Shown piece after piece: positions 1,063 through 58,794 of a stretch of 64,000 bases of DNA. Location: assembly GCA_037501455.1 (NCBI GenBank), contig CM074858.1:81442501-81506500 (forward strand), in the 5' to 3' direction. The DNA is from Lantana camara (taxonomy: Eukaryota; Streptophyta; Magnoliopsida; Lamiales; Verbenaceae). Each line of letters opens with the position of its first letter. Within the stretch, counting starts at the first letter, position 1. The notes under the pieces were generated by a model. It was not told the DNA's origin. It ran no database searches and saw only the letters and a program-made list of their open reading frames with translations. The translations under genes and the position numbers were made by a program.

Positions 1063-2867
1063 TGTAACGCCCCGTGTTTTCACGCGTGCATGTAAGTGTT
1101 ACGTGTGCATTTACATTTAATTATATGATTTTATATTTTGATTAATTGGTTTAAACTCGTTTATAATTTGCGTTATTTGTTTAAATCTCATATGAATTCC
1201 AATGTGTGCTATGAATATATGAATGAAATTGTGGAAATGTGAATTTCGGGAATTTGGTGTTAATTGAAATCTTTCGTGTTATATGTGCGTGCCGTGGGCT
1301 TGATTGTAACTTATTTGAATGTTTTGGACTCAATTGGAAATTGAGTTTGGGCTTAATTGCCACTTTTTGAAAGTTGAGGGACCTATTTGTATAATAGGCA
1401 ACCCTGAACGGTTTTCGCGATATCTTGAGCTCCAGACCTCGAAATCGAGATCCGTTTTCGGCGTTGAACTCATTTCGACGATACCTATTCTTTAAACTTG
1501 ACCTTGTACCTTTTTGATATTGTTTGAACCTTCGACAACGATCCTTTCCATGGCCTCGACTTTATAACTTGTTTTGAACCTTTTACTCAAACAAACCGGA
1601 CTTGGACCGACCCGAATCCTACCCATTTCTCCACTAGATATCAGCATTTCCTTCCTTATGCTTCCCTTTTCATCGATCATTAGCCATCCCAAGAGACAAG
1701 GAAGCTCCAAGAAAACCCTCCTTTTGATCTTCCATAATTTGAGCTCAAGATCAACTTTCATCCAATCTTCTTCCAAGGTAATTGGTGATTTGCAACCTCC
1801 ATCTTCTCCTCTATCTTTTCATCTATGGAAACTTGGCATGAGTGGAGAATTCATATGGTTTGAATGAAAGCATGATTTGGGGTTTGGTTCTTGGTCATTG
1901 GATTTCATGATTTAAAGTGAGATTTGAGGCATGGAAATTGTTACTTGAAGCTTCCTTATCGTTTCTATATACTTGAATTTCATATTGATTGATTATAGCA
2001 TGAGTTACCATTGAAGGAGCTTAAAGCTTCCATGTTTGAAGGCTTGATTTTGGGTGATCATTTGCCAACCTTATGCATGAATTCTTGTAAATATGAATAA
2101 GTTACATAATTTGTATGAATTATATGGATTGAATTCGTATCTAAGTGTACCTAAGAGCTTCCTTGTTGCTGCCCCTGCTCTTCAAAGCTTTTCCCTCGCT
2201 AAAACAGAACTTCTGCTCTGTTTTTCCTCGCAAGACGACGAGCTGACACGGCCGTGTCAGCTTTGAACTGAAAACGGACACAGCCGTGTTGGGCTCTCGA
2301 CTTGTGAAAAATAATTTCAGAAAATCGGACACAGCCGTGTCCAAATCCTTTGAAAATGTAACAAGGCCGTGTCATTTGAATTGGCAGCTTTGGGGAACCT
2401 CTTTTCTTGCTTCTATCACATTTATTGTTCGTATTCGTGAATTATTCAACGTGACTCCATTCAAGCTTTGAAGTATGATTGATTTATGACCTTGAAAGTT
2501 ATATAAATGCAAGAATGAAGGTTATGAAAGTCATGAATGGAAATGAATACGATTGTATCGTATATTGAACGAAACTTGGTGAATTATGTGTTTAATTGAA
2601 TTCCATGGTATTCATGATCATATTTGGACATGTTCTTATGTTTCAAGCAATCCATAACATGTCATTGCATAGCCGAGCGTCAAATGTGGTCATATTTGAG
2701 TCTCACACTACCTTTGTCACACAGATATTGATCCTGTGGGAGACGAGGTTGAGCAGTGAGGTCTTTGTCGTGTTCTTCTGTCTACCAGGTGGGTTTTTCT
2801 TCTATTAGCTAAAGATATGACCCAAAACACCTAATGTACAAGATTTTGGCCAAAGCTATATAAAGAT
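1063..2867 (+). repeat. Element A 3' LTR, proximal part
   Basis: The LTR begins TGTAACGCCCC directly after the purine tract. It contains a cluster of palindromes (2242-2374), a block GCCGAGCGTC with GAGTCTCAC downstream (about 2671-2710), and a splice-donor-like CAGGTGGG near 2788, in the same order as in other LTRs here. It stops at the AAGAT target duplication of element B (2863-2867) and continues at 17648, for a total near 2.8 kb. No protein-coding gene is supported inside it. Confidence 0.85.
2242..2374. repeat. Palindrome cluster in LTR A (core ACGGCCGT)
   Basis: Four short dyads lie within about 130 bp. The first, GCTGACACGGCCGTGTCAGC at 2242-2261, is a perfect 20-bp palindrome. The others, at about 2275-2291, 2327-2342 and 2361-2374, are imperfect copies built on GACACNGCCGTGTC. 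Other LTR families carry different palindromes at the same relative position. Confidence 0.85.
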
Positions 2868-5164
2868 TGTAACATCCCGCTCGCCCGATTTATGAGGTAC
2901 GCCAGGTTTCAACCCTTTTATGTGTTTCATTATGTGATTTTATATTTTCGTGGCCCTATTTTGAACTCTTTTAGAGTTTAGGGGCCCTTTTGTAATTTTC
3001 TCTTTTTAGGGGTCTTTTGGTCATTTCTCGTTCGATCGAGTTTTCGACCTTTTTGACCCCCTCAACGCGTTCGGGGCATCGAGACGAGTCCGTAGACTCT
3101 GAGTTTGCTCAATTCTGACTTCGTTAGCCCGTTCTTCCGATCGTTTTTGCGTACGAGGACCCGAGATTTCTACCCCGAATCCTCGTAATTCGTGCCAAAA
3201 GATCAGACCTCAGCCTGCATCGTCTTCCTCCAGCGAACAACACTGTTCACACACTCGAAGGTGTGATTTCACACACATGCTCGTTCTCCATCGTTTCTCG
3301 ACGGAATTCGATGAATCAATAGTCGAAATTCATCAGCTCGATGAGCCCGTCACAACCGTACCAACTTCGTGGCCAACCGACGACCCACGGCGGCACAGCG
3401 GCGGCCTGAAAGTGGCGGGTGGCGCCACCACTTCGTCGCGGGTGATCCGGCGACTTTCGCCGGCCAACCACTACCCTACCCTACGTTTTTTACCCTTCCC
3501 GTTCCATTTCCGGCCTCCTTTTTGAGCGAATCGCTGCGGAGACGGCGGAATCTGCGGTGGCGCGGCAGTAGAACTTCGGCGGCGATTTGGGCCCTTTTTC
3601 GGGCCGATTTTGGTGTTGGTCGCTTCACGAAAGTTGCTTAGAACGACGGAAACTAGCGGATGGCCTTGGCCCCGACTCGAGAATCGGCCGGCGGCGGCGA
3701 ACTGGTGGCGGACCGGGCCTGGACCGACGGTCGGATTTTCCGGTGACTTTTTCCGGGTTTTGGCTAGGGGCTTTCGTAGAGCTCGTTACGGGCTTTCCAA
3801 CGGTATGTCCGGATTTTATTTTCATTTAGCGGTTTGTATTTAATTTCAGTTTTTGTACTAGGATTTTGGTTCGGTTTTTCGTCAAGGAAGTCCGGCGTGT
3901 TTGGTATTTTCTGAAATTGATTGAGGGTTTTTGTCGAGCAGGCCGAGACACACGTTTCTGTCCTTCCGGGGATTTTTCCGACCACCGGAGGCGGTGTTCC
4001 GGTGGCGGCCGGTGGCTGTTCGGCCGGCTACGGTGGCGGCATTCCGGCAACTTTCGGACAGTAGGTCCGTTTCTTTGTGGTGACTCCAACGCCACTTCCC
4101 GTTCGTCAATCGGATGTCCGGTTGATTTGTTGTGATTTATTTTGTACAACTTGAATATTTGAAATTAATTGTTTTAATTGCTAATAGCTTGATTTGTCGA
4201 TCGAATTGTATTTCAATGAGTACGAAATCATGTATTAGATGAATTATGGATTATATTGATGCTTTGATATGCCATTTGAATTCCGATGTATCGAATTTGA
4301 GCTATTTGGCTATCTTGAAGGGGGTGTATATGTAATTTCACTAAACATATAAATTGTATGAACTTGGTAATAATGAATAACATAATTGGAATTTGATATA
4401 TGACTTCGTAAGCTTAAAGGGATTCGTAACGTGCTATTATGTGAATTTTGTATAAAATGTGATATGTAGACTTGCGTGATTTGAATTAATTGAACTTCAA
4501 ATTTGTCACTTGGTAAATAAATATGTTAATCACGTAAATTGGAATTTGATATGTAACTTCGTGATCTTTAAATAGAATTTGTAGCATGTTATTATATGAT
4601 TTGTTTGGCTTTATAATACGTATAAATTTATGAAATGTTATCTGTGAATTCTATTGCCTTTTAAGTCCCCTTAATTGTATTAATTGTGCTTATGGACATA
4701 CCTTAATGTTTTGTTTTGCCTGAAATTAATATGGATTTGAATCCTGCTTATGTGATTGCATTTGTCGTGCGTCCCTGTGTGGTTGTCTGAGTTGAGTCTG
4801 AGCCTTGTGGTCTGTTTTGTGTGTTCAGTTGGTTCAGGTGCACCCGGGGTGGTGACAAGTGAATCGTGCAGGTTCCGGGGTGGACCTTCTGCTTTGTGTT
4901 CGGCTGTGTTTGGTACCAGGTGAGGTTAGGTTATAGTTATACCCTATTGATATGTGCCTATATGTTGCATGCGAATATAAGCCTTACGTATATATGTAGA
5001 TACGTGTGCAATACGAATATGTGTGACTTGGTGTTATGTTGGTTATAAGATATGCAAGTACGATATGTATGATTGTACATGTTATGTTTGAGAATGAGTA
5101 TGTGGGATGTGTGCGTTGTGATATGTTTCGTGTTGATTCGAATGTGTAAACTATGATATGATTA

Positions 5165-5290
5165 TGATTATGAACGTGGCGTGCGTGCGTGCGTGAGTTT
5201 GTGAGTGCGTGCGTGAGTTTGTGAGTGCGTGCGTGTGTGTGTGCGTGAGTGGTGGTGCGTGTATGTGAGTGCGTGTGTGGGAGTGTTGTG
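5165..5290. repeat. GTGCGTGC/GTGTGT low-complexity tract in LTR B
   Basis: Alternating purine-pyrimidine GTGC and GTGT repeats, with interspersed GAGTTTGTGAGT units, fill this stretch. A close copy lies at 16408-16535 in the second LTR. Alternating tracts of this kind are prone to slippage and Z-DNA formation; no coding is seen. Confidence 0.8.
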
Positions 5291-5303
5291 TGTGTTGGTG
5301 TAG

Positions 5304-5575
5304 GGCCGGTGATTATGGGTAAGGAGCCTCGGAGAGTCGTGTATTACTCCTGTGCATGGTCATCGAGATGTGGGTAAGGAGCCTCGGAGCGTCGAGTATT
5401 ACTCCTGTGCACATTTTCCCTCTGATTTGATGGTTTGACTCTGCTTTGCTTGGGGGCCCGGTGATTATGGGTAAGGAGCCTCGGAGAGTCGAGTATTACT
5501 CCTGTGCATGATCATCAGGATGTGGGTAAGGAGCCTCGGAGCGTCGAGTATTACTCCTGTGCACATTTTCCCCTT
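5304..5575. repeat. Four-unit tandem repeat in LTR B
   Basis: A unit of about 40 bp, GGTAAGGAGCCTCGGAG followed by a GTCGAGTATTACTCCTGTGCA-like part, occurs at about 5316, 5373, 5469 and 5524. Units 1 and 3 are preceded by GGTGATTATG and units 2 and 4 by a GATGTG context, so the true period is a two-unit block of about 150 bp. The array is repeated at 16540-16810. Confidence 0.85.
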
Positions 5576-6413
5576 TTGTCTGAACATTTGCTTGGTGTGT
5601 TTGTTTTGTTAAGTTAGTTTGTTAGGAAATGGTTCGGGAAACGGGAGTGGATTTCTAATTAATAAAATTTGGATTGTTTTGGCCTTTGGCCTAACTTTTT
5701 TACTCCCCTATATCTAGTATCACATGAGAAATATTTTAGAATGCAAAAACCGCGTCCTGGTTCACGAACTCCCCTTTATGATATGTGTTGTGCTCTGTAT
5801 ATGTATATACGCGTGTGTGTGTAGCCCCTCGCTCAGTCTTTGGACTGAGCCCTCCCCTTTTATGTTTTTAGTTTACAGGCATTGCTTTGGTGTTCGTTGG
5901 AGTTCGTGCTAGGTGGCGGTGTGTCGTCTCTGTCGAGTCTGTGTCTGCACGTTTCAGTTTGTTAAGTATTTTATTCTGATTTATGGTTCGTAAACTCTGT
6001 ATAAGATATGTTTGTGCAGGTTTGCATTTATGATTTGAATTTATGGAATTCGGGACAGGTTAGGACAGGTGCTTGGATTAGTTGAACCCATTGTGAATAT
6101 ATGATTACTCGGGACAGGTTAGGACAGGTTTGCTGGATTAGTCGAACCCGTTTAGTTCATTTTGATGTTTGTATGGTACTGTGCGTTTAAGGTATGAAAG
6201 CTTTTGAAAGTTGGCATTTCGTACTACTTCCGCTGTCATGCTTCGCATATCTTCTTTTGTACAGGGTTAGGTACCGCCTAGCTAGTGTGTGCGTTTTCGT
6301 TTGTCACCCGTTCGCTGTGACTTGGTGCATGTGCGGACTCTCCATTTCGTACACGTGTCGGGTCATAATGCGGGGGATGTGGCGCCTCACGTGCGGGGTG
6401 TTACATCTATAAG

Positions 6414-6426
6414 TGGTATCAGAGCT
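6414..6426 (+). other. Primer-binding site of element B
   Basis: TGGTATCAGAGCT lies 8 bp after the LTR end. It matches the initiator methionine tRNA complement used by most plant Ty3/gypsy elements. Elements D (28828) and E (minus, 58766-58777) carry the same site. Confidence 0.9.
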
Positions 6427-6896
6427 ACCAGGTTCAGAACTGGTGCTCTGGAGTCGTGTCGTGTCAGTTTAGGTCGTACGGCATAGGAATATGTGCGCAT
6501 TGCATCCGTTTGGCCTGTAATTTTGCTTCCTCAGTTTGAATTGTACTGAGTTATGTGATTAAGTGCGCAATATGATTACGATTGTGCATACATTTTATCA
6601 ATGTGCCTTTAATTGCTTTTATTGTTGTGCTTACATGACATAGATGTCACATTACATTTGCATTCTTAACCCTCATGCACCAATTTAGTGTTTTAACTAC
6701 AGGGCTGCTTTAGCAACAATGTAATCACCTTTCTTGGTCAAGGCTTCCAATACTACGGTGAACGGTACATTAAGCATGCATGACACGAGCATACATGCAT
6801 TCTTTATTTGATTAACCCTTGATATTACGTGATATATCTGTCAATTGTGATACTTACTAATTGTTGTGATTTTAATTTTGCTTTTGTGCTTGAGTG

Positions 6897-7234
6897 AGAG
6901 AGATTTGATTCTCTCTATTTATGTGCTAGGGGGATGTTAATTCTTCCTACTTGTGTGTTAGAGAGATGCTGGATTCTCTCTATATTACGTGACAGAAAGA
7001 TGTTGGATTCTTTCTGAGTTTTGTGTACAGGAGATGCTGGATTCTCTTGTTCTTAGGTATTCGAGGGCTGCTGGATTCCCTTGAATTTAGGGTTTGAGAA
7101 ATGCCGGATTTTCTCAAACTAGATTGTCTGAGAGATGTGGAATCAATCAGACTTAGGTTGAGAAACGGGTTTTCTCTTTTGTGTGCCGAGGGACGGGGTT
7201 CCTTCGCTTGTGTGTCGAGAGATGGGATTCTCTC
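6897..7234 (+). repeat. Tandem array of eleven hairpins with covarying stems
   Basis: Eleven consecutive units of about 20-28 nt each fold into a short stem and loop, separated by linkers resembling TTGTGTG. Stems are 6-10 bp and differ between units, for example TAGAGAGA/TCTCTCTA (6959-6982), CAGAAAGA/TCTTTCTG (6993-7016) and GTTTGAGAAA/TTTCTCAAAC (7092-7119). The loop is nearly constant, TGYTGGAT or TGCCGGAT, in units 3, 4, 5 and 7. Differences are compensated on the other arm or by G-U wobble. The structure sits in the only non-LTR part of a coding-free element, so a role in RNA packaging or dimerisation is plausible but inferred. Confidence 0.88.
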
Positions 7235-7542
7235 TCTTGTTTGTTGCGGTTGCGTTACTTTTGGCCAGACGACAGCTTGCAAGCAACGAGGACGTGACGG
7301 TATCAAGCTTCGGGTGCAGTGGCCTAGTGGTGAGCGAATGAGTTGAAGTGACCAACGGTCAAGTGCTCAGTGGGACCTCTATGACAACGAATCACCATGA
7401 AGGGAGTTGATGCCAGCCAAGGGAGAAGTATCCTACAGAGATTGCAGTCCGCCTAGATCAGAGTTGCGCAGCGGAAGCTTGAAGTGGAATTCGTTTCAGC
7501 TCCATTAAATATCTGACCTTAGGACCTGAGGACAGGTCCTTT

Positions 7543-7557
7543 TGAAGGAGGGGAGTT
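7543..7557 (+). other. Polypurine tract of element B
   Basis: TGAAGGAGGGGAGTT directly precedes the second LTR and would prime plus-strand DNA synthesis. The upstream GAGGACAGGTCC is shared with element C at about 14293-14304. Confidence 0.85.
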
Positions 7558-9713
7558 TATAACATCCCGCTCGCCCGATTTATGAGGTACGCCAGGTTTC
7601 AACCCTTTTATGTGTTTCATTATGTGATTTTATATTTTCGTGGCCCTATTTTGAACTCTTTTAGAGTTTAGGGGCCCTTTTGTAATTTTCTCTTTTTAGG
7701 GGTCTTTTGGTCATTTCTCGTTCGATCGAGTTTTCGACCTTTTTGACCCCCTCAACGCGTTCGGGGCATCGAGACGAGTCCGTAGACTCTGAGTTTGCTC
7801 AATTCTGACTTCGTTAGCCCGTTCTTCCGATCGTTTTTGCGTACGAGAACCCGAGATTTATACCCCGAATCCTCGTAATTCGTGCCAAAAGATCAGACCT
7901 CAGCCTGCATCGTCTTCCTCCAGCGAACAGCACTGTTCACACACTCGAAGGTGTGATTTCACACACATGCTCGTTCTCCCTCGTTTCTCGACGGAATTTG
8001 ACGAATCAATAGTCGAAATTCATCAGCTCGACGAGCCCGTCACAACCGTACCAACTTCGTGGCCAACTGACGACCCACGGCGGCACAGCGGCGGCCTGAA
8101 AGTGGCGGGTGGAACTACCACTTCGTCGCCGGCGATCCGGCGACTTTCGCCGGCCAACCACTACCCTACCCTACGTTTTTTACCCTTCCCGTTCCATTTC
8201 CGGCCTCCTTTTTGAGCGAATCGCTGCGGAGACGGCGGAATCGGCGGTGGCGCATCGGCAGAACTTCGGCGGCGATTTGGGCCCTTTTCCGGGCCGGTTT
8301 TGGTGTTGGTCGCTTCACGAAAGTTGCTTAGAATGACGGAAACTAGCGGATGGAGTTGGCCCCGACTCGAGAACCGGCCGGCAGCGGCGAACCGGTGGCG
8401 GACCGGGCCTGGACCGGCGGTCCGATTTTCCGGTGACTTTTTCCGGGTTTTGGCTAGGGGCTTTCGTAGAGCTCGTTACGGGCTTTCCAACGGTATGTCC
8501 GGATTTTATTTTCATTTAGCGGTTTGTATTTAATTTCAGTTTTTGTACTAGGATTTTGGTTCGGTTTTTCGTCAACGAAGTCCGGCGTGTTTGGTATTTT
8601 CTGAAATTGATTGAGGGTTTTTGTCGAGCAGGCCGAGACGCACGTTTCTGTCCTTCCGGGGATTTTTTTGACCACCGGAGGCGGTGTTCCGGTGGCGGCC
8701 GGTAGCTGTTCGGCCGGCTACGGTGGCGGCATTCCGGCGACTTTCGGACAGTAGGTCCGTTTCTTTGTGGTGAGTCCAACGTCACTTCCCGTTCGTCAAT
8801 CGGATGTCCGGTTGATTTGTTGTGATTTATTTTGTATAACTTGAATATTTGAAATTAATTGTTTTAATTGCTAATAGCTTGATTTGTCGATCGAATTGTA
8901 TTTCAATAAGTACGAAATCATGTATTAGATGAATTATCGATTATATTGAGGCTTTGATATGCCATTTGAATTCCGATGTATCGAATTTGAGCTATTTGGC
9001 TATCTTGAAGGGGGTGTATATGTAATTTCACTAAACATATAAATTGTATGAACTTGGTAATATTGAATAACATAATTGGAATTTGATATATGACTTCGTA
9101 AGCTTAAAGGGATTCGTAACGTGCTATTATGTGAATTTTGTATAAAATGTGATATTTAGACTTGCGTGATTTGAATTAATTGAACTTCAAATTTGTCACT
9201 TGGTAAATAAATATGTTAATCACGTAAATTGGAATTTGATATGTAACTTCGTGATCTTTAAATAGAATTTGTAGCATGTTATTATATGATTTGTTTGGCT
9301 TTATAATACGTATAAATTTACGAAATGTTATCTGTGAATTCTATTGCCTTTTAGGTCCCCTTAATTGTATTAATTGTGCTTATGGACATACCTTAATGTT
9401 TTGTTTTGCCTGAAATTAATATGGATTTGAATCCTGCTTATGTGATTGCATTTGCCGTGCGTCCCTGTGTGGTTGTCTGAGTTGAGTCTGAGCCTTGTGG
9501 TCTGTTTTGTGTGTTCAGTTGGTTCAGGTGCACCCGGGGTGGTGACAAGTGAATCGTGCAGGTTCCGGGGTGGACCTTCTGCTTTGTGTTCGGCTGTGTT
9601 TGGTACCAGGTGAGGTTAGGTTATAGTTATACCCTATTGATATGTGCCTATATGTTGCATGCGAATATAAGCCTTACGTATATATGTAGATACGTGTGCA
9701 ATACGAATATGTG
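7558..9713 (+). repeat. Element B 3' LTR, proximal part
   Basis: This is a near-identical copy of 2868-5023, including the GC-rich block. It breaks off after ACGAATATGTG at 9703-9713, where the element C fragment begins. The LTR resumes at 16252 without loss, and the same 11 bp also stand at 16241-16251. Confidence 0.9.
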
Positions 9714-9834
9714 AATTATTTGCATTCATCTATACATTTATGTGAATTAATTGTTTAAAATTTTAATTAATTGCTTCCATGAACATACATTGAACCCCAT
9801 GCATCAATATTTTCTTGATTTGTGAATTTTCAGG

Positions 9835-12800
9835 ATGCCTCCACGAAGGAGAAATGATAGGGAACAAACCCCGGATCTTAATCAACCTCCTCCACAAGCA
9901 CCACCACCTCCTCCATTGAATGCAGAAAATATTGTTCAGGCTCTCTTAAACCAGTTGCAACAGAATCAAAGGAATAATCCTTATGGGGAGGCTCAAGAGG
10001 GTCAAGTTACCTCGGCTTTTAGGGAATTTCGGAACAACAACCCTCCGAAGTGGTACGTCGGTGATGATATTAAAGCAGAGGAATGGTTGTCAGAAATTTC
10101 GGGGATTTGGGAAATATGCCCTGCACCATCTCATGAGAAGGCAGTTTGCACGGTTCGTTTTGTTCAGGGTCCCGCCTCTAATTGGTTGAAGGCTATGAGA
10201 GCTCGGTTAGAAAGAATGGGTGAAGAGTTTAACTGGGAAAGCTTCATAAGAGAATTTCACCACAAGTATATCCCACCAAATGCCCGTGAAAGAAGACTCC
10301 AGGAATTCACGGAGTTAAAACAAGGGAATCGTTCTGTTGAAGATTATATTTTGGAATTTGAAAGACTCGCCCCGTATGCCCCTCACATCACTAACGATGA
10401 TACTCAGAAAGCCCGGAATTTTATTCATGGGCTGAGGTATGACGTTCAGAATGCTCTAAAGGCCGCTACTGTGGACACTTGGGAGAAGGCTACAAGGAAG
10501 GCACTGAAAGTAGAAGCTCATAATTTGAGGATGAAACCTCCGGCTTACTCTTCGGGGCAAGGTTCGAGCACCGGATCAAATTTGGGTAAGAGGCCTATCT
10601 CTCAACGTGGGCCTCCGGTCTTCAAGCCCAAAGGTTCTAATCTTTTTAATAAGAAGCCCCGACCTCAAGGACAAGCTGTGGTACCCGCTCTACCGGCCCC
10701 AATTGAGTGTTCTTATTGCGGGGGTCCCAATCATACCCAGGAGACATGCCGAAAGAAATTGGGAAGGTGCTATGGTTGTGGGGAGCCCGGTCACATGATC
10801 AACGCTTATCCTAAGAAGAAGGATCCTCAACCCTTGAATACTAGGCCTCCGAGAGCTCCTATCCAAGCCAGAGCCTATGCACTTGAAGGTGAAGAAGAGG
10901 ATGCCGAGGTGGATGCAAATGCCGTCGTTGAAGGTACTATTAGCATTCATGGCATTCCATTACATGCATTATTTGATCCGGGAGCAACGCATTCTTTTAT
11001 TGCTTCCCGGTGTGTTCCTGCACTTTCTTTGCCTGTTGCTTGCTTTGATGATTCCTTTGTTGTGAGTTCCCCACTCGGGGGCAGTTTGGTAGTGGACCGT
11101 GTGTTTCGTGGGTGCCCGGTTGTTGTTGAAGATCAAGAGTATCCGGCAGATTTGATTGAGATGCCTATCAAGAGATATGGGGTAATTTTAGGGATGGACT
11201 GGTTGTTTCGACACCGAGCCATGATGGATTGCTTCGCTAAGAAGGTGACATTGGGTTCTACGGTATTTGCGGGTCAGAGATTGAAGGCCTGCCTGTTTAT
11301 ATCCTTTATGGAAGCAAGTAAATTGTTCCGGGACGGTGCAACGGGCTACGTGGCCTACCTTTTGAATAAACCGAAAGATCAGGCCAAGCTCGAGGAGACG
11401 GAGATCGTGAAGGAGTTCCCCGATGTTTTTCCGGAGAATTTGGGGTCTTTGCCTCCGGATCGGGACGTCGAATTTATAATAGATCTCTATCCCGGAGCGG
11501 AACCTTATGCGAAATCTCCCTACAGGATGGCTCCAGCGGAGTTGAAGGTGCTGAAGGCGCAACTTGATGAGCTCTTAGAGTGTGGTTACATTCGCCCGAG
11601 CACTTCTCCGTGGGGTGCTCCTGTCCTGTTTGTAAAGAAGAAAGACGGGACATTGCGGATGTGTATTGACTACCGTGAGCTGAGCCGGTTAACGGTTAAA
11701 AATAAGTACCCACTTCCTCACATTGAAGAGTTGTTCGATCTTCTTCAAGGTTCGTGTGTTTATTCTAAGTTGGATTTAAGACAAGGGTACTATCAGTTGC
11801 GTATCCGGGAGGAAGACATATCGAAGACGGGTTTCAACACTCGTTATGGGCATTTCGAGTTCGTGGTCATGCCTTTTGGTCTTACTAATGCCCCAGCCGC
11901 GTTCATGCATATGATGCACCGAATATTCCGGCCCTACCTCGATAAATTCGTGGTCATCTTTATAGATGATATTCTGGTGTATTCGAGGTCCGTTGAAGAT
12001 CATGCGCGGCATTTGAGAATGGTATTGTCAACACTTCGAGAACATAGATTGTTCGCCAAGTTCAGTAAGTGTGAGTTCTGGATTGAACGGGTTTCATTTT
12101 TGGGTCACTTTATCTCAGGGAATGGTGTTGAAGTGGATCCAGCAAAGATAAAAACGGTTATGTTATGGAAACAGCCGAAGAATGCCTCTGAAGTGAGAAG
12201 TTTTCTAGGGTTAGCGGGGTATTATAGGCGCTTTGTGAAAGACTTCTCGAAGATTGCTTCCCCGTTGACTCGGTTAACAAAGAAAGAGGTTAAGTTCGAG
12301 TGGGACGAGGCGTGTGAGAAGAGTTTTCAAACTCTTAAGGAGAGATTGACTTCTGCACCGGTTTTAACCCTACCCGACGGTTCTGAAGGTTACTCGGTTT
12401 ATACCGATGCATCGAAGGAAGGGCTCGGTTGTGTCTTGATGCAAAATGGTAAAGTAGTAGCATACGCCTCGAGGAAGTTAAAAGATCACGAGAAAAATTA
12501 TCCCACTCATGATTTGGAATTAGCTTCGGTTGTTTTTGCTTTGATGAAATGGCGTCATTATCTCTATGGGGTTACTTTTGAAGTTTTTACCGACCACCAA
12601 AGCCTTAAGTATTTGTTTACACAGAAGGATTTAAATGTAAGGCAAAGACGTTGGGTTGAGCTACTTGAGGACTATGATTGTAGAATTCAATACCATCCGG
12701 GTAAGGCTAATGTGGTTGCGGATGCTTTGAGCAGAAAGGTTAGTATCTCGAATTTGGGAGCAGGTTCAAGTAAACAGAGTTCGGTATCCTTGGTTTTAGA

Positions 12801-14295
12801 GGCCCGTTTGGCAAATATATCAGTACAACCGGATTTGAGGCAAAGATTGATTGAAGCTCAATCTAATGATTTGGAAATTCAAAGATTAGTAGCTAAGGCA
12901 AGGATTGATCCAGAGACAAAATTCGGGTTTGATGATTCGGGATTATTCCGGTTTAAGGCTCGGGTGTGTGTTCCAGATGAACTTAAGCAGTTGGTGTTGG
13001 ATGAGGCGCATAAGTCGGCTTATACGGTACATCCCGGTACTACTAAGATGTATAGAGATTTAAGAAGTTTGTATTGGTGGAACGGCATGAAAAGAGATGT
13101 GGCCAATTATGTAAGAAGGTGCCAAACATGCCAAGTGGTGAAAGCTGAACATCAAAAACCGGGGGGAACTCTCCAACCACTTCCAATTCCTGAATGGAAG
13201 TGGAAACAAGTGACGATGGACTTCGTGTCCGGCTTGCCAAGGACCAAAGGAGGTTTCGATGGAATTTGGGTCATAATTGATCGGTTTTCGAAGTCGGCTC
13301 ACTTTCTCAAGGTCCGGATATCCGATAAAGTGCCTAAGTTGGCCAAGTTGTACCGGAAAGAAATTGTGAGATTACATGGTGCACCTGTCAGTATTGTTTC
13401 AGATAGGGATCCACGGTTTACAGCGAGTTTTTGGCAGGAATTACAGAAGTGTATGGGAACGAAACTTCAGTTTAGTACTGTATCTCACCCACAAACGGAT
13501 GGACAATCCGAGAGGTTAATTAAATATCTTGAGGACATGCTTCGTGCTTGTGCTTTAGACTATCAAGACTCGTGGGATGAGTATTTGGATTTGGTCGAGT
13601 TCGCCTATAATAACAGTTTTCAGACTTCGATTGGTATGGCTCCGTATGAGGCATTATATGGAAGGAAATGTCGATCACCTTTATTTTGGGATATTGATGA
13701 ATGGAGATGGACAAAGGATGGTAAGCTCGACAGAGCTAAGAAACCAAAGGAGATCCAAGATACCATCGAGAAAGTGAAAGTGATTCGACAAAGGCTAAAG
13801 GCGGCTCAGGACCGACAGAAAAGTTATGCGGACAAAAGAAGACGACCCTTGGAGTTTGAAGCGGGAGATAAGGTTTTTCTAAAAGCATTTCCTAGAAAAG
13901 GGTTTGCTCGGATTGGTAAAGGCGGGAAGCTTAACCCGCGTTACTTAGGCCCCTTTGTGATTCTTGAACGAGTTGGGGAAGTAGCCTACCGGCTTGATCT
14001 ACCACCGAGTTTGACCGGGATACACAATGTTTTCCATGTCTCTCAACTCCGAAAACACTATCCCGATGAGTCTTCTATAATTCCAATCAAAGAGGTGCAA
14101 CTAGAGCCGGATTTGACAATCAAGAAGTACCCGGTTAAAGTTTTGGACCGGAAGATGCAAGAATTGAGAAACCGGCAAATCCCCTTGGTAAAAGTCTTGT
14201 GGCGTGATCAGAAATCCGAAGAAGCCACTTGGGAAACCGAGGAGAAAATGAGACAGTTGTACCCGGAACTTTTCAAGACCTCGCTTCGGACCTGA
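9835..14295 (+). CDS. Element C gag-pol polyprotein, 1486 codons
   Basis: A single uninterrupted frame encodes the full Ty3/gypsy order. The Gag domain lies at about residues 60-240 and two CCHC-type knuckles at about 291-330. The aspartic protease motif (residue 381) reads D-P-G instead of D-S/T-G. Reverse transcriptase has FIDDILVYS (Asp711-Asp712), RNase H has [10 protein letters not shown] (about 855), and integrase has [15 protein letters not shown] and QSE. A chromodomain-like tail (about 1450-1480) completes it, pointing to a Tekay/Del-type chromovirus. The second knuckle has Tyr for its last Cys (codon 10807-10809). The start is the first ATG, immediately after an acceptor-like TTTTCAGG. 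The ORF is intact but has no 5' LTR here to drive it. Confidence 0.93.
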
Positions 14296-14309
14296 GGACA
14301 GGTCCTTTT

Positions 14310-14323
14310 GAAGGAGGGAGGTT
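14310..14323 (+). other. Polypurine tract of element C
   Basis: AAGGAGGGAGGTTT lies between the gag-pol stop and the LTR start TGTAACATCCCGACC at 14324. It is nearly the same as the tract of element B. Confidence 0.85.
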
Positions 14324-16240
14324 TGTAACATCCCGACCGATCAGACTTTCAGGTATATTTTTATGTGTGCGATTTAATTAATTAATTACGTGAATGTTTG
14401 ATGTTTATTAAATTCTTATGTGGAAATTTGATAATTATTTGATTTAAGAATGAATTTTGTTTTGAATGTTTAAACCCTCTACGCTTGAAATTTTACCCTA
14501 TTCGTGTCCGATTTCAATTCTGTTTCTTGCGAATTTTTGATATGCGTGAATTACTTGAGTTAGGAACTTGACTATATGTTCATTTTATATTTTGTAATTT
14601 GTTTGGTTTGTCTTTTCATTTTAATTTTGGAGACGGAACCTAAAGGAGGCTAAAGAGCATTTAGAGCGCCTTAGGTTCCGAGAAGCACAAATTGAGCTCG
14701 GGAATTCAGATTCGAATTCCGTCACCTCCGTTGAACTCGTATCCATGATTCGGGTTCAATAAACATAGCCTCATATTTTTCTAAGCTCATTTAGACCTCC
14801 GAAATTTAACCGAAACAAGCCTCGTATGCCATTTTAGACCTTTGCCCACTCTTTTATTCATAACTTTTGATATATTTGACCAAATTAAATAAACCTTGTC
14901 CCCACATACTCCTAACATACTCCTATATCAGCCATAAGCCCCTCATTTCGTTCCAACCTTGGAGAGAAGGGAGAAATAGCTGCTCAAAACCGAGACCAAG
15001 AAGGAAGCAAAATTATACTATTCATCTTCCAACCTTTTGAGCTCAAATCCTCATCAAATCCTTCCATTTTCGAAAGGTAAGCTTGTAATTTGTTTCTCCA
15101 TCTTCTCTTCTTTGTTTAGATACCTTATTTGCTCAATTTGGTGGTGATTTGATCAAGATATGAATATTTCTATGAATAGTAAGGGTTTTGCTAATTTTGA
15201 AGATATAGCTTGATCTCTTGGAGTTTTGTTGGAGTTTTTGTATCCTAATTGATCTTGTGACATTATAATATAAGTGTATGGTCTGATTTTGCATGAGAAT
15301 CTAGGAATCTTTAGGTTTCAATTTGGGTTTTTGGCATAAACTTGAAGATATGTATATCTCTTGCATTCCTTCATTTGAATCTTGATGTTTAGCTTGGATT
15401 TTGACATGGATTGAGTGAATATATGACATATTATGATCCTAATATGTTCTATCTTGAGTTTTCATGAATTTGGATGAGTTTTGGAGAGTTTTGGGGCTGA
15501 AAATTCGAGTTTTTTTGGCTTCCGACTCAAATCCACGGGGGTGGATTTTCCCTTTGAAAAAAATCCGCCGGGGTGGATTTTCCCTTTGAAAAAAATCCGC
15601 CGGGGTGGATTTGAGTCAGAAACTCCTGGAAAATCCATGGGGGTGGATTTTCCCTTTGAAAAAAATCCACCGGGGTGGATTTAGGTCAGTAGCTCCTTTT
15701 GCCCCAAACTTTGGTTTTCTTGTTTTGTTTCATTTTTTTTTTCGCTTTCCCAACCCTAATTTGATCCCCATGCTTCTTATAACATGTTATATTGTGTGTT
15801 AAGATTTATGTTATGAATTTATAGTTCGTTTTACATCCTTGTTTATGATATGTGAGTTCATATGCAATGTGTGACCTTATATGACCTAAACATGAATTCA
15901 TCTCATTTCATTTGCATCATTTACACGCATGTGCATTTGCCGAGCGTTTATGTGGTACATTGTGAGTCTAAGATTATCCCTTGTTATTTGTTTTGTGTAG
16001 TTGACCCTCCCGTTGACGACGAGGTTGTCCCTTAGGCGTCCGGTTCGCTTTCTTTTGTCACCGCTACGCGTTCGGAAGGTGAGGTTTTATTCTTTTAGAT
16101 ATTATGACCTAAAACCCTAAATGTTTTTAATCCCGCATGCGATTTATGTATACTATATGTTAAATATATGTATGGTATGTACTTTGAGGACTTGTTCTCT
16201 TTGTTATAAGTTTTTCAAAACGATTTGTATAAGTATATAA
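14324..16240 (+). repeat. Element C 3' LTR, truncated
   Basis: The LTR opens TGTAACATCCCGACCG and carries an ATCCA-type palindrome cluster, a GCCGAGCGTT...GAGTCTAAG block near 15939 and a donor-like AAGGTGAGG near 16077. It then stops at the junction with LTR B. By comparison with complete LTRs here it lacks roughly its last third. The open frames 15481-15684 and 15605-15802 are translations of the palindrome repeats, not genes. Confidence 0.85.
15527..15683. repeat. Palindrome cluster in LTR C (AATCCACNGGGGTGGATT type)
   Basis: Five units of the dyad AAATCCRCSGGGGTGGATTT lie within about 155 bp, several joined by TTCCCTTTGAAAAA spacers. The same dyad occurs four times in LTR D (about 27168-27290), next to a different palindrome type. 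Confidence 0.88.
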
Positions 16241-16251
16241 ACGAATATGTG

Positions 16252-17642
16252 TGACTTGGTGTTATGTTGGTTATAAGATATGCAAGTACGATATGTATGA
16301 TTGTACGTGTTATGTTTGAGAATGAGTATGTGGGATGTGTGCGTTGTGATATGTTTCGTGTTGATTCGAATGTGTAAACTATGATATGATTATGATTATG
16401 ATTATGAACGGTGCGTGCGTGCGTGCGTGAGTTTGTGAGTGCGTGCCTGAGTTTGTGAGTGCATGCGTGTGTGTGTGCGTGAGTGGTGGTGTGTGTGTGT
16501 GAGTGCGTGTGTGGGAGTGTTGTGTGTGTTGGTGTAGGGCCGGTGATTATGGGTAAGGAGCCTCTGAGAGTCGAGCATTACTCCTGTGCATGGTCATCGA
16601 GATGTGGGTAAGGAGCCTCAGAGCGTCGAGTATTACTCCTGTGCATATTTCCCCTCTGATTTGATGGTTTGACTCTGCTTTGCTTGGGGGCCCGGTGATT
16701 ATGGGTAAGGAGCCTCGGAGAGTCGAGTATTACTCCTGTGCATGATCATCAGGATGTGGGTAAGGAGCCTCGGAGCGTCGAGTATTACTCCTGTGCACAT
16801 TTTCCCCTTTTGTCTGAACATTTGCTTGGTGTGTTTGTTTTGTTAAGTTAGTTTGTTAGGAAATGGTTCGGGAAACGGGAGTGGATTTCTAATTAATAAA
16901 ATTTGGATTGTTTTGGCCTTTGGCCTAACTCTTTTACTCCCCTATATCTAGTATCACGTGAGAAATATTTTAGAATGCAAAAACCACGTCCTGGTTCACG
17001 AACTCCCCTTTATGATATGTGCTGTGCTCTGTATATGTATATACACGTGTGTGTGTGTAGCCCCTCGCTCAGTCTTTGGACTGACCCCTCCCCTTTTATG
17101 TTTTTAGTTTACAGGCATTGCTTTGGTGTTCGTTGGAGTTCGTGCTAGGCGGCGGTGTGTCGTGTCTGTCGAGTCTGTGTCTGCACGTTTTAGTTTGTTA
17201 AGTATTTTATTCTGATTTATGGTTCGTAAACTCTGTATAAGATATGTTTGTGCAGGTTTGCATTTATGATTTGAATTTATGGAATTCGGGACAGGTTAGG
17301 ACAGGTGCTTGGATTAGTTGAACCCGTTGTGAACATATGATTGCTCGGGACAGGTTAGGACAGGTTTGCTGGATTAGTCGAACCCGTTTAGTTGATTTTG
17401 ATGTTTGTATGGTACTGTGCGTTTAAGGTATGAAAGCTTTTGAAAGTTGGCATTTCGTACTACTTCCGCTGTCATGCTTCGCATATCTTCTTTTGTACAG
17501 GGTTAGGTACCGCCTAGCTAGTGTGTGCGTTTTCGTTTGTCACCCGTTCGCTGTGACTTGGTGCGTGTGCGGACTCTCCATTTCGTACACATGTCGGGTC
17601 ATAGTGCGGGGGATGTGGCGCCTCACGTGCGGGGTGTTTTCA
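16252..17642 (+). repeat. Element B 3' LTR, distal part
   Basis: Collinear with 5024-6405 of the first LTR, including the tandem repeats (about 16540-16810), the CAGTC/GACTG hairpin and the terminal GTGCGGGGGATGTGG block. It ends TGTTTTCA and is followed by the AAGAT duplication at 17643-17647. Confidence 0.9.
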
Positions 17643-17647
17643 AAGAT

Positions 17648-18645
17648 ATATATCGAGTTTTCAACGAGTCAATGTTTTAATGTAAAGCCTTTAATTTGAA
17701 TATCCTACCAAATGTTTTGGCGAGAAATGAATGTTCACCATGAATGGGGACCCGGGACTTAGTGTATTTGGTGAACCGGGGAAGCTTGGGATGACGGGAA
17801 TCCACATATACTAGTTCCATCAATTACGGTAACCTAGACTTCACTAGGAGATTAGTGAAAGAAGGGGATCCGAGCTTTTGGGGATTCATGTACCCCTCTA
17901 GCACCAATAAATGAGGGTTCGGGCCTTGCAAACCCGTTCCCTAACCGGTGGAAGAAGGAGTATATGAATGATCGAATGAATGTGCACAAAAGAATGAAAT
18001 GCATGAACGAATGAATGAATAAATGATTAATGAATTACACAAGGTGTTGGTTGGAGATAATGCACGCCCTCTCGCTGGGCCACAAAGAACCTAATGAATG
18101 AAATGAATTATTATAATCCTATTCGTTGTATTTGACATCCCGCTTGGGAAAATTATTCCAAAACCTCGATTAAGGATTATAGCTTGCATGTATGTGTTTA
18201 AATTCCGCTATATTATGATATTAAGCCTGTTTTATACCCACCAGTCTGTCTAAGACTGAACCCGGAGTTGTTTCAGTTCTCTTTACAGGAAGGGATGCTA
18301 GGCAGGATACAAGTCTGAGAGAGTCTTGCATAGTGTCTAGCCTTTCTTTCTTTACACTCATACGCTTATTTTATGGTATTTTGGATATTGTATATGAATT
18401 CGAGCGTACATGTATTTGGTATTGGTATTGATCTTCCTTGAACTTAAATGTTGGTACCTAGAGCATATAGCTCAATATATGGAATATGAATTGTTGTTGG
18501 GGTTTAAGTGATAGGTTAGTCCCGCCTGGCTTAGCTAGTGTGTATGTCCCCTTTCGCTATGATTTGGCACGTGTGTGGAAATCCATTTCATATACGGGTC
18601 AGGTCATAGTGCGGGCGATGTGATGTCTCGCGCTTGGGCATTAGA
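17648..18645 (+). repeat. Element A 3' LTR, distal part
   Basis: This continues the LTR interrupted at 2867. It carries a CCAGTCTGTCTAAGACTGAA hairpin near 18240, an acceptor-like TTTACAGG near 18283 and the block GTGCGGGCGATGTGATG just before the end. The exact end is eroded (GGGCATTAGA instead of GGTGTTACA), so the boundary is good to about 5 bp. Confidence 0.75.
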
Positions 18646-26177: not shown

Positions 26178-28819
26178 TGTAACACCCCGACTCACAGTCG
26201 GTACAGGTAAATTATGTGATTTAATATTATTTGCGTTTTAGATTATTTGTATAGGACTATTTTTGAATTATTTGAACTTATATGAATTATGTGAATGAAT
26301 GTTGCATGAGATTTATTCGTTTTAATTTGAGTTGGCCTTATTTGGACCCGTAATTGTTGAACCGAACCAACTTGAACCGGGAACCTTGAACCGAACCCGT
26401 GAACCGACCGGTCCAGCCTTAAAGGCTGAACCATTTTTCTCCTCCTTCTTTCACGTTCATTTTCAGCAACAACCAAGCCAAGCTAGAGCTTGAACCCCAA
26501 GTTGATCATTCCAACTTCCCAAGCCAATATCTCTCTCGTTTCTTTGTCTTTTCTCGAACTTAGGTATGTTTCTGAATCCCCTCGTCGTGCTCGTCGTTTC
26601 TATGGTTTAATTTCCGAGTTTGGAGTGAGTTTAGTGTGCCTTTGCTTCCTTACGTGAATGGTAAGGGTTAGCTATAAAATGTGAATACTTGCTCTTTGCT
26701 TGAGGTACTTGATCCCTAGCTTCATATATGAGTTATATAGGTTGTATGTGTTGCATTTATTGCATTTAATCCATGGTTAGTTGAGCATTTATGAATGATC
26801 ATGATTTTTGCTTGAATATTGCATTCCCTTGATCATGCCTTTTAATTCCGTTTTCTTGAGTTATTTGAGTGTTTATATGTCAAGCATGATTTATTTGAAT
26901 TGTTTGTGCATTTTGAGAAGTTGTGGCAATTTTAAGGGTTGAATTTTGGCCATTTTGGCAAAATTTTGAGCTTCCCCTGTTTCTGCAATGGAAATTCTGT
27001 TCCAGCTTTTCGAACCAGGCCGGAACGGCCGTTCCCGCCCAGTTTCAAACTGGGAACGACCGTTCCCAGGCCATTTACTGTTCATGCCGAGAGTGGGAAC
27101 GACCGTTCCCAGTTTGTACTGGGAACAGGAACGGCCGTTCCCATGGCCGGAACCCTTCTACTGGGTCAAATCCGCGAGGGTGGATTTTTTCCTTTGGAAA
27201 AATCCATGGGGGTGGATTTGAGGCAGTAGGTCTGGAAAAATCCGCGAGGGTGGATTTTTCCCTTTGGAAAAATCCATGGGGGTGGATTTTGCCACTTTTT
27301 CTCTTTGCCTTAATTATGCAATTTCATGACTTTAAATGCTTTTCTTTTGCATATTAATTGTTATAATTTGATTGCTTTGCATAATAAATTGTGAATAATT
27401 ATGTTATACTATGATTTGTGTATTATATGACTTAATTGTGATATTTTACATGTGAACATGAATCATGCATTTGGCCGAGCGTCTTCTTTGGTTCATATAG
27501 AGTCTAAGTCTTGGGCTTTCGTGTTTTCTTTTCAGAGGAGGTTCCAGTTGACGAGCCCGAGGCGTAGGTTGTTCACGTCGGCTCGCTTTTTGTCACGCAC
27601 AAGGTGAGGTTTAGGACTTTTATTAGCTAAGCGACCTAAAGCCTTATGTGATGTTTTCAGGCCGTGCATGTGACTATATATTATATATATAGATATGTAT
27701 GTGTTGATTAGAATATGATTATGATCTTGTGAACAACTTTGTTTTGGGAAAAGATATTATATAAGCATATGTAAGCTATGTTTTGGAAAAGGCTTTACAA
27801 ATCTGTTAGCGAGAGCGCCATGAAAGATTTGGCATATGATATGATTTGTGTTTGTGGATCCAAGGAGCTATGGGTAAGGAACCCTCGGGACAGTTCGGGC
27901 CGTCGAGCTTCGGCCTGTGCGTAGTCTCCATCCGATATATCACACGCGACCCCTGGGAGTTTGGGAAGGTGTGATATTTCGATGCCTTCGGCGTAAAAAC
28001 CGGGGAGGGCACGATGTGGGTTCGCTACCCCTCGTGAGTCTGTTTATGTATGGATGGTTAGGGCCGCCGGTGGCTCTTCCATCATTGGTGTAGAGGTTGA
28101 TATGTATGATTTCCGTTTTGTTTGTTCTGAGGAGTAAAGGTTGGAAGCTCGTTCTCGCCGAGCATTATGTATGTTGTGTATGTTTGAGAAGTATGAATCG
28201 GGATAGTGTTTATGAAATGTTCTAAAGTATATGTATATGTTTTGGAAAGTTTTAGTTTGTAAAACCTATTCCGGTTCATAATATCACCCTTTGCTTTGTG
28301 CTCTGCTTTATATATATATCGGGTGTGGGTGTGCGTTAGCCCCCTCACTCAGTCAGTTGACTGACTCCTCGTTTACTCTTTTAGTTGCAGGTTTTGGGAG
28401 CGTGAGCTAGGCGGAGAAGTGTGTCTTCTGTTGCACTTGTCAGTCTAGGTCTCGTTAGGTGCATTTACATACCTGCACTTTATTATTTTGTAGTTGTATA
28501 GTTATGATTTGTATATACTTACTTACTATTTTGTTCAAGCCGGGATGGCTTTTGTACAGGATGTGTTGGTACTTATACGTAAATACTATATGGATAGGTG
28601 TGTGTTGGTACCTATATATATATATATGTGATGTTTTGCTTGTGGCTTTTATTTATTCGCTTCCGCATACTCTGATTCTGTTTGGTTTAGCTCCGCCTAG
28701 TCTAGAGTGTGTGTTTGGTCTCCTGTTCGCTATGATTCGGATTCGGGTGCGGACATTCCATTTCGTATTCGGGTTCGGATTATGGTGCGGGGGATGTGGC
28801 CCTACGTGTGGGTGCTACA
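26178..28819 (+). repeat. Element D 5' LTR
   Basis: It runs TGTAACACCCCGACTC to GGGTGCTACA. In order it shows two palindrome types, GCCGAGCGTC with GAGTCTAAGTC (27474-27510), donor-like AAGGTGAGG (27600), a GGTAAGGAACCCTCGGGAC block (27871), the CAGTCAGTTGACTGACT hairpin (28351) and acceptor-like TTGCAGG (28385). Confidence 0.93.
27019..27290. repeat. Two palindrome types side by side in LTR D
   Basis: Four units of GGGAACGRCCGTTCCC (about 27021, 27051, 27094 and 27128) are followed by four units of AAATCCRNGNGGGTGGATTT (about 27168, 27199, 27237 and 27268). The first type is also in LTR F and the second in LTR C. The second D LTR repeats them at about 38248-38519. Confidence 0.9.
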
Positions 28820-28827
28820 TCCTTAAG

Positions 28828-28840
28828 TGGTATCAGAGCG
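28828..28840 (+). other. Primer-binding site of element D
   Basis: TGGTATCAGAGCG begins 8 bp after the LTR end TGCTACA and matches initiator-Met tRNA. Confidence 0.92.
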
Positions 28841-29059
28841 CGGTTGCCAAACCGGGCTCTAGTGTCGTGTGGGTCTGTGTAGGTCGTACGGCTTAGGACA
28901 CCGTGATTGTGTGATCGGGTGTAAATGTGCATGTATGATTTGAGTATGTGATTACTTGACTAATTGATTACTTGATTACTTGATTATTTTCTTAAATTGT
29001 ATACATATTCATACACTAATTCACATGCATCCATATTGCTTGAATTTGTGAATTTCAGG

Positions 29060-58569: not shown

Positions 58570-58794
58570 CCTATAAGATAAAACATTAAAATGCATGCTA
58601 TGTTCAGTTCATGCATGAAAATACAAGATAATTCAATCAAAATACAAGAGATAAGCACATAAGCACGTAAGAAATGCATAAGAATCACGTTGATAAGTAA
58701 TTCCTAATATCGTACGACTTAGACAGACTCAACACGACACAAGAGCCCGGGTTTGACAACCTGAAGCTCTGATACCACTTAAGGATGTAGCACC
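58570..58794 (-). other. Element E leader, primer-binding site and last 9 bp of its 5' LTR
   Basis: The primer-binding site TGGTATCAGAGC reads on the minus strand at 58777-58766. Only TGTAGCACC (58786-58794 on plus) remains of the 5' LTR before the insertion of LTR G; the rest would lie beyond H and G, outside the window. Confidence 0.85.

What the first reader, a model, noticed from the sequence alone, without database searches (positions are those of the whole stretch)
6897..7234. Eleven tandem RNA hairpins with covarying stems and a constant loop in a coding-free retrotransposon
Stem-loops stand at about 6897-6916, 6927-6949, 6959-6982, 6993-7016, 7027-7050, 7059-7086, 7092-7119, 7126-7152, 7160-7176, 7187-7206 and 7217-7234. 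Stem sequences differ between units but pair within each one, including G-U pairs (6927-6949 has two, 7027-7050 one, 7059-7086 one). The loop TGYTGGAT hardly changes in the middle units. Such compensatory change indicates selection on RNA structure. The array fills the centre of the only non-LTR part of element B, so it may be a packaging, dimerisation or protein-capture platform that lets a coding-free element exploit an autonomous one. I know of no described counterpart in plant LARD elements.
Basis: seen in the sequence. Interest (0 to 1): 0.9.

Follow-up and report, generated by a model that had tools for sequence, protein, structure and literature searches.

The report
Hairpin array in coding-free plant retrotransposons
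A string of about eleven small RNA hairpins in a plant jumping element that encodes no protein is real, recurs near the 3' end of related protein-less elements, and tends to keep its base pairing as its sequence changes, so it is probably a working RNA part, though what it does is not yet known.

Summary
Eleven hairpin units of ~33 nt stand at 6896-7236 in a non-coding LTR element (LTRs 3.5 kb, internal domain 1,152 bp). Folding beats 100 of 100 shuffles (z -4.33). Arms pair within their own unit far better than across units (Watson-Crick: 0 of 200,000 permutations). In the 1.27-Gb host assembly, an array-blind sample of 60 primer-binding sites (2,148 in the genome) shows the array at 36; 24 were not followed to their 3' end. 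It occurs in three element types whose middle sequences share only short stretches. It starts 0.5-2.9 kb after the primer site but ends 323-384 nt before the 3' LTR. One hairpin has 3,942 genomic matches, control 0. Between blind copies, shared stem variants keep pairing in 14 of 20 cases against ~36% expected (p=0.002; G-U 8, A-C 1); some other measures show no excess. Sequence conservation above the flanks, seen at first, was mostly sampling bias. Best reading: a 3'-anchored RNA module selected for pairing, probably a multivalent protein-binding platform (packaging, else export or stability). Function is inferred. Template-switch repair plus common descent is the main rival.

The parts
2863..2867 (.). 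target-site duplication AAGAT, 5' copy
   Evidence: matches 17643-17647
2868..6405 (+). 5' LTR of element B (3,538 bp, TGTAACATCC...GGTGTTACA)
   Evidence: 97-98% match to 7558-9713 plus 16241-17638
6414..6425 (+). primer-binding site TGGTATCAGAGC (initiator-tRNA-Met type, name recalled)
   Evidence: sequence; 2,148 genomic matches to the extended 31-nt site at up to 3 mismatches, control 0
6420..6450 (+). hairpin that takes in half of the primer-binding site
   Evidence: fold in B; analogous hairpins with a different inner stem in elements C and D
6896..6917 (+). array unit 1
6927..6949 (+). array unit 2 (two G-U pairs)
6959..6982 (+). array unit 3, loop TGCTGGAT
6993..7016 (+). array unit 4, loop TGTTGGAT
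7027..7050 (+). array unit 5, loop TGCTGGAT
7060..7085 (+). array unit 6, loop contains TGCTGGAT
7092..7119 (+). array unit 7, 10-bp stem, loop TGCCGGAT; a 30-nt pattern on it has 3,942 genomic matches at up to 3 mismatches, control 0
7126..7152 (+). array unit 8, 8 of 10 pairs in register
   Evidence: and the sequence
7158..7178 (+). array unit 9
7186..7207 (+). array unit 10
7215..7236 (+). array unit 11
7522..7539 (+). perfect hairpin GGACCTG-AGGA-CAGGTCC before the polypurine tract; also in A and, by a strict pattern, perfect in 13 of 20 copies examined
7544..7556 (+). polypurine tract
   Evidence: sequence
7558..9713 (+). 3' LTR of B, first part
9714..16240 (+). nested chromovirus A lacking its 5' LTR (gag-pol ORF 9826-14295, chromodomain match below curated cut-off)
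16241..17642 (+). 3' LTR of B, second part
17643..17647 (.). target-site duplication AAGAT, 3' copy

Best explanation
A tandem array made by unit duplication (by length, 11 units in 3, about 13 in 26 and about 15 in 1 of the 30 distinct close copies) forms a row of short hairpins in the RNA of a large group of non-coding LTR retrotransposons. Pairing is kept by selection on the RNA while stem letters drift. The module sits 0.32-0.38 kb before the 3' LTR in three element types that otherwise share the LTRs, the start of the internal domain, the region next to the 3' LTR and a few short stretches. Inferred step: the repeated stem with a G-containing loop is a multivalent landing site for a protein, most likely the Gag/nucleocapsid of an autonomous chromovirus (packaging), with nuclear export or RNA stability as close second choices. 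Shown: encoded structure, covariation, recurrence, 3' anchoring, absence of coding in what was read. Inferred: selection at the RNA level (my estimate about 0.65) and Gag binding (about 0.3).
For: Fold z -4.33 (B), -4.85 (type X copy L133), -4.18 (type Y copy L137). Within-unit Watson-Crick pairing: 0 of 200,000 permutations in B and again in L133 (73 of 88 against 59.4; with G-U 79 against 69.7, 11 of 200,000). Unconstrained simulations of matched divergence never reach it (0 of 4,629 matched runs, ten units without U8). Array-blind sites: array in 16 of 60 within 1.8 kb of the primer site, in 10 of 10 further sites extended, and at 10 more by exact unit-7 matches listed; 24 not followed. (26 blind copies + B, U4-U8): 1,007 of 1,042 cells paired, 18 of 2,000 shuffles reach it; both-sided cells 12 against 1.9, 1 of 2,000; shared variants 14 kept, 6 broken, p=0.002; G-U 8 to A-C 1. 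(16 blind copies + B, 63 pairs): cells paired 93.8% against 92.6%, 0 of 500; both-sided cells 18 against 8.3, 3 of 500; array match end to LTR 338-384 nt in 19 copies and 323 in B; array start 484-2,905 nt after the primer site. A's Gag has a CCHC knuckle; loops are 39% G against 28% for the region.
Against: Within B the other strand folds with a better z. Loop conservation does not exceed spacer conservation significantly, and between copies loops vary as much as spacers (0.169, 0.167). Array identity is not consistently above flank identity in the array-blind sample. In one search the number of pairs with a both-sided change (7 against 5.5, 140 of 500) and of further pair types (443 of 500) are not in excess. 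Private stem changes are not significantly biased (18 of 40 kept, p=0.15) and shared do not differ significantly from private (p=0.18). Stem diversity is lower than elsewhere but not significantly (p=0.11). In the Y copy the MFE mixes local hairpins with long-range pairs, and in B U7 and U9-U11 are displaced. No array or TGYTGGAT loop is in the leaders of C and D. 3' anchoring fits a 5' packaging signal poorly. No expression or binding data.
Confidence: 0.45

Rival explanations
1. Neutral tandem repeat of quasi-palindromes. Units multiply by slippage or strand transfer, and intra-hairpin template switching during reverse transcription or replication copies one arm onto the other, so arms change together without selection. 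Copies share the array by common descent.
For: [quoted passage not shown] that paper concerns DNA replication). Tandem-repeat regions in 3' UTRs of Ogre/Tat elements are common and have been ascribed to illegitimate recombination or abnormal strand transfer (PMC7004042, passages). Unit number varies by whole units. Palindrome arrays recur elsewhere here (LTRs of A and C). Array divergence is like that of the LTR start. Several covariation measures show no excess.
Against: Repair by template switching should give Watson-Crick stems, and later decay should give G-U and A-C alike, yet G-U exceeds A-C on the transcribed strand (5:0 within B; 25:13 one-sided, p=0.036; 8:1 shared). The array persists in three types whose middle sequence differs and at a near-constant 3' distance.
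Confidence: 0.3
2. A 3'-proximal RNA export, stability or 3'-processing element, like the constitutive transport element of simple retroviruses (comparison recalled), that moves or protects an untranslated genomic RNA.
For: 3' anchoring within 0.4 kb of the LTR in the 20 copies measured, B included; B has no long sense ORF; element A has pol ending at its polypurine tract and no room for an array.
Against: No Rfam match at gathering threshold; no expression data. The paper search on this point failed.
Confidence: 0.2
3. A DNA-level array of protein-binding sites such as the tandem insulator sites of Drosophila gypsy (recalled); the hairpin shape is incidental.
For: Repeated unit with a constant core TGCTGGATTCT in the middle units; about 33-bp period.
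Against: Palindromic binding sites should keep arm letters, but between units arms vary more than loop or spacer and covary; G-U excess over A-C has meaning only in RNA.
Confidence: 0.05

Closest known systems
LARD elements such as Sukkula of barley (Kalendar et al. 2004, recalled; paper not held)
   Same: Long LTRs, non-coding internal domain, presumed trans-mobilisation; RNA secondary structure reported as conserved in LARDs and TRIMs (PMC7215508, passages).
   Different: Here the structure is a defined tandem array of short covarying hairpins anchored to the 3' end; the internal domain of B is short (1.15 kb). What the 2004 paper shows could not be checked.
BARE2, a Gag-less barley element packaged into particles (PMC3735527, passages)
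   Same: A parasitic element that cannot make Gag, is found in particles and keeps packaging and dimerisation signals.
   Different: Copia superfamily, keeps coding sequence beyond gag; no tandem hairpin array in the passages read.
Retroviral packaging signals (psi), groups of stem-loops with exposed G (recalled)
   Same: Multiple short stem-loops, some with G-rich loops, in genomic RNA.
   Different: Psi lies in the 5' leader; this array follows the 3' end, has 11-15 tandem units and is absent from the leaders of elements C and D in the window.
Tandem repeats in 3' UTRs of Ogre/Tat elements (PMC7004042, passages)
   Same: Tandem repeats between the coding part and the 3' LTR of Ty3/gypsy plant elements.
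   Different: Those are described as hypervariable and as sources of satellites; this array keeps stem pairing and sits in non-coding elements of a chromovirus-like group.

Membership tests
LARD (large retrotransposon derivative) | Two LTRs, primer-binding site, polypurine tract, target-site duplication | tested here: met
   LTRs 97-98% alike, PBS 6414, PPT 7544-7556, AAGAT on both sides
LARD (large retrotransposon derivative) | Internal domain without protein coding | tested here: met
   Longest sense frame in the internal domain 82 aa; tblastn of A and C polyproteins gives only 18-20 aa matches, best E 0.004. No sense gag-pol match in the first 1.8 kb of 60 array-blind loci nor in the 10 extended loci
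LARD (large retrotransposon derivative) | Many dispersed, structurally uniform copies with no coding member | tested here: inconclusive
   2,148 PBS-site matches and 3,942 unit-7 matches, but only a sample was read, and three internal-domain types were found, so structure is not uniform
Packaging (psi-like) signal | Binds Gag/nucleocapsid and directs RNA into particles | not testable with these tools
   needs binding or particle assays
Packaging (psi-like) signal | Shared with the helper element's RNA | tested here: inconclusive
   absent from leaders of C and D and from the pol-LTR gap of A; A's leader is truncated and the helper is unknown
Packaging (psi-like) signal | Position in the 5' leader near the primer site | tested here: not met
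   0.5-2.9 kb from the primer site but 323-384 nt before the 3' LTR
Known RNA families (Rfam 15) | Match at gathering score | tested here: not met
   0 matches in the window; one match at E 0.3 far below its gathering score
Template-switch-maintained hairpins | Watson-Crick arm repair without strand bias in mismatches | tested here: inconclusive
   G-U exceeds A-C but numbers are small and copies are related

The most novel reading that the evidence does not exclude
Coding-free elements of this plant carry a common 3'-anchored RNA 'ticket' of 11-15 tandem hairpins, kept by selection on pairing while middle sequences were swapped, which captures the proteins of autonomous chromoviruses and let the non-coding group spread to thousands of copies.
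Probability: 0.25. Interest if true: 0.85.

Novelty: new variant of a known kind. Interest (0 to 1): 0.6.

Why it matters
How protein-less retrotransposons get their RNA recognised by another element's machinery is an open question in plant genomes. This array is a small, defined module with recognisable unit structure, shared by three non-coding element types in one genome and absent from the autonomous elements in the window, so deletion, scrambling and stem-swap tests are direct. If it is neutral, it is a good natural case of covariation produced without selection, which would be a warning for RNA-structure inference.

Tried and rejected
Conserved island: copies found by querying with the array itself had arrays 93-97% identical to B while the left part of the internal domain was 72-96% (six copies). 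An array-blind sample did not repeat this consistently (for example 79.0/82.3/69.8% and 82.5/79.9/78.0% for left/array/right), so it is put down mainly to ascertainment and not used. The test (11 of 15 shared and 15 of 26 single stem changes kept; null 0.32) is on those array-selected copies; the array-blind tests are the ones relied on. Part stopped with an error after its table; one search replaced the rest.

Known RNA family: none. Coding origin: none found. Viral and prokaryote collections: exact 20- and 24-nt patterns gave 0; a degenerate 17-nt pattern gave 15 loci with one match each, not followed and taken as chance on my own estimate; the PPT pattern and a gag query gave none. Host name: not established; the first seven named hits to A's polyprotein are plant proteins at 42-54% identity.

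Loop motif as a shared helper signal: TGYTGGAT has 11 sites in the window against 6.05 expected (3 of 100 shuffles reach it), 4 of them in the array and 2 in the LTRs of B; none in the leaders of C or D. Not pursued.

Rows dropped: leave out L090 and L121 (unit 1 missing); one search uses U4-U8 only because U1-U3 differ by unit loss; one search leaves out unit 8; identical rows counted once (30 of 40 copies; 37 rows). One search was given 10 of the 16 blind B-like copies; for three of the other six (L077, L088, L105) the coordinates give 375, 327 and 355 nt to the LTR start, and the last three (L090, L121, L128) have no LTR match in the piece held. U8 was mis-registered and corrected; arms were registered by hand with folds in view.

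Literature: searches answered were made; none listed a paper on tandem covarying hairpins in LARDs by title or abstract start, but subscription papers are mostly absent. Searches failed, so packaging, insulator and export comparisons are from memory.

Full report
What is there. The window is plant DNA (host assembly 1.27 Gb, window at C4:81442501-81506500). Element B is a non-coding LTR retrotransposon: 5' LTR 2868-6405, internal domain 6406-7557, 3' LTR 7558-9713 plus 16241-17642, target duplication AAGAT on both sides. Its 3' LTR is interrupted by a chromovirus, A (9714-16240), that lacks its 5' LTR and has an open gag-pol frame with gag, protease, reverse transcriptase and integrase zinc-binding matches above cut-off; the integrase core and chromodomain matches are below their cut-offs. 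B's internal domain has a primer-binding site at 6414, a polypurine tract at 7544-7556, no sense frame above 82 codons and no credible gag-pol match.

The array. Eleven units of about 33 nt, each a purine-rich 5' arm, a loop and a pyrimidine-rich 3' arm, fill 6896-7236. The region folds better than 100 of 100 shuffles on the transcribed strand (z -4.33) and on the other strand (z -8.25). A chain of 7 hairpins with stems of 7 bp or more is not matched in 200 shuffled windows (longest 4); with stems of 6 bp the margin is 7 against up to 6 in 30. The key test is whether arms match their own partner: 74 of 88 positions are Watson-Crick within units against a mean of 54.9 when 3' arms are dealt among units, 0 of 200,000; with G-U counted 2 of 200,000. 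Five middle units change on both sides at 6 of 8 pairs. Simulated unconstrained divergence from a perfect hairpin never reaches the observed pairing in 4,629 matched runs. Pairs that are not Watson-Crick are G-U five times, A-C never, and other mismatches nine times; G-U without A-C is expected if the plus-strand RNA is what matters, but the number is small. In the whole internal domain the predicted ensemble forms U1-U6 and U8 well, and U7 and U9-U11 hardly; in the MFE U7 and U9 pair with each other.

Other copies. After many unanswered requests the genome search returned 53 matches, 40 of them separate copies including B, from 2,997 candidates of which 40 were scored. Of the 40 copies 30 arrays are distinct; by length 3 have 11 units, 26 about 13 and one about 15. 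These copies had been picked by array similarity, and their arrays looked more conserved than flanks. I therefore took a sample blind to the array: a 31-nt primer-site pattern has 2,148 matches at up to 3 mismatches and none for the reversed control; 60 of the 100 listed sites (40 of one mismatch along chromosome C1, 20 of zero mismatch) were fetched with 1.8 kb downstream. The array is in 16 of 60 at 78-90% identity; one has gag-pol, in antisense and 99% like element C, so a nested insertion; 43 had neither. In this sample array identity is about that of flanks and LTR start, so the island was mostly sampling.

Three element types. The 44 loci without an array in 1.8 kb fall into two groups (26 plus the array-bearing L090; and 15) and three singletons. 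They match B mainly for the first 60-183 nt after the primer site (one singleton for 385). Types X and Y and B's left part share a few further stretches of 49-90 nt, some of them just upstream of the array, and otherwise show no match. Ten loci extended, five of each group, all have the array further down at 76.7-82.5% identity, with the LTR start following in the nine whose piece is long enough. Ten more of the 40 chromosome-1 sites have an exact unit-7 match 2.0-3.1 kb downstream in the same orientation, read by hand from the list. So the array is shown at 36 of 60 blind sites (16 + 10 + 10), and the other 24 were not followed to their 3' ends. It starts 484-2,905 nt after the primer site, but the array match ends 323 nt before the 3' LTR in B and 338-384 nt before it in 19 copies; three more give 327, 355 and 375. 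No sense gag-pol match is in the 60 pieces or the 10 extensions; the stretches between those pieces were not read in all copies. Unit 7 alone has 3,942 genomic matches at up to 3 mismatches, control 0; how many lie in such elements was not counted.

Is pairing kept between copies? In the 16 blind arrays plus B, 93.8% of 1,013 cells are paired; shuffles give 92.6% (0 of 500 reach it) and slid partners 38-64%; both-sided cells are 18 against 8.3 (3 of 500), while the number of pairs with both-sided change (140 of 500) and of further pair types (443 of 500) show no excess. Stem variants keep pairing in 33 of 65 cases against 36% expected from the loop and spacer spectrum (p=0.009); one-sided transitions give G-U 25 and A-C 13 (p=0.036). 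Shared variants are biased (15 of 25, p=0.012), private ones are not (18 of 40, p=0.15), as expected if private changes arose after insertion, but the two classes do not differ significantly (p=0.18). With types X and Y added (27 rows, U4-U8), paired cells are 1,007 of 1,042 (18 of 2,000 shuffles reach it), both-sided cells 12 against 1.9 (1 of 2,000), shared variants 14 kept and 6 broken (p=0.002), G-U 8 and A-C 1. The within-unit permutation test repeats in the type X copy L133 (0 of 200,000 for Watson-Crick pairs, 11 with G-U). Copies are related, so these p-values are too small by an unknown factor.

Meaning. Two readings remain. In one, the RNA hairpins do something and selection keeps them paired. 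In the other, template switching repairs arms and common descent spreads the array. PMC8794818 (passages) makes the second a serious rival. G-U over A-C, retention in three types whose middle sequence differs, and near-fixed distance to the 3' LTR favour the first. I put selection on RNA pairing at about 0.65. Which function is open: a Gag/nucleocapsid landing platform is the most natural for a protein-less element, and BARE2 is the precedent of a Gag-less element that keeps packaging signals (PMC3735527, passages). The 3' position fits export or stability elements as well.

Known and new. LARDs are known, and conserved RNA structure in LARDs and TRIMs is stated in print (PMC7215508, passages). 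Tandem repeats in 3' regions of plant elements are known (PMC7004042, passages). A 3'-anchored array of 11-15 short covarying hairpins shared by several non-coding element types was not found in the search listings answered.

Noticed in passing
6420-6450; about 28834-28860; minus strand near 58776: Half of the primer-binding site is paired into a hairpin in elements B, C and D; the inner stem differs between them but stays paired.
   Followed up: partly
7522-7539 and 14288-14305: A perfect 7-bp hairpin GGACCTG-AGGA-CAGGTCC stands just before the polypurine tract in B and A; a strict pattern finds it or a perfect loop variant in 13 of 20 further copies.
   Followed up: partly
15529-15682; 27168-27289; 38397-38518: LTRs of A (5 units) and C (4 units per LTR) hold another hairpin array, AAATCC(A/G)(C/T)-G-rich loop-GTGGATTT. 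Stem variants are G-U, none A-C.
   Followed up: partly
27020-27150: Four near-palindromes of the GGGAACGGCCGTTCCC type in the LTR of C.
   Followed up: no
30359-34217: A B-related insertion in element C with duplication GTTTT: LTR plus start of the primer site, then an inverted and largely deleted LTR, so both outer ends are LTR 5' ends, a head-to-head LTR arrangement.
   Followed up: partly
9703-9713 and 16241-16251: Truncated chromovirus A inside B's 3' LTR is flanked by a direct repeat of about 11 bp (ACGAATATGTG), longer than the 5 bp of B.
   Followed up: no
G000 C5:69273605-69287586, C1:49570092-49579961, C10:80142250-80152611, C11:59618225-59632832: Array copies recur at even spacing (about 4.74, 4.75, 5.0 and 7.1 kb), which suggests chains of alternating LTRs and internal domains.
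   Followed up: no
60726-60940: CACTACAAGAAAAAT-type end with hairpin-forming subterminal repeats, probably a CACTA transposon end (family recalled).
   Followed up: no
6301-6450 and 7601-7750: Among 150-nt pieces of 2401-18000, the LTR end with primer site (z -5.8) and a stretch near the LTR start (z -4.9) have lower z than any piece of the array (-3.4 at best); 40 shuffles each.
   Followed up: no
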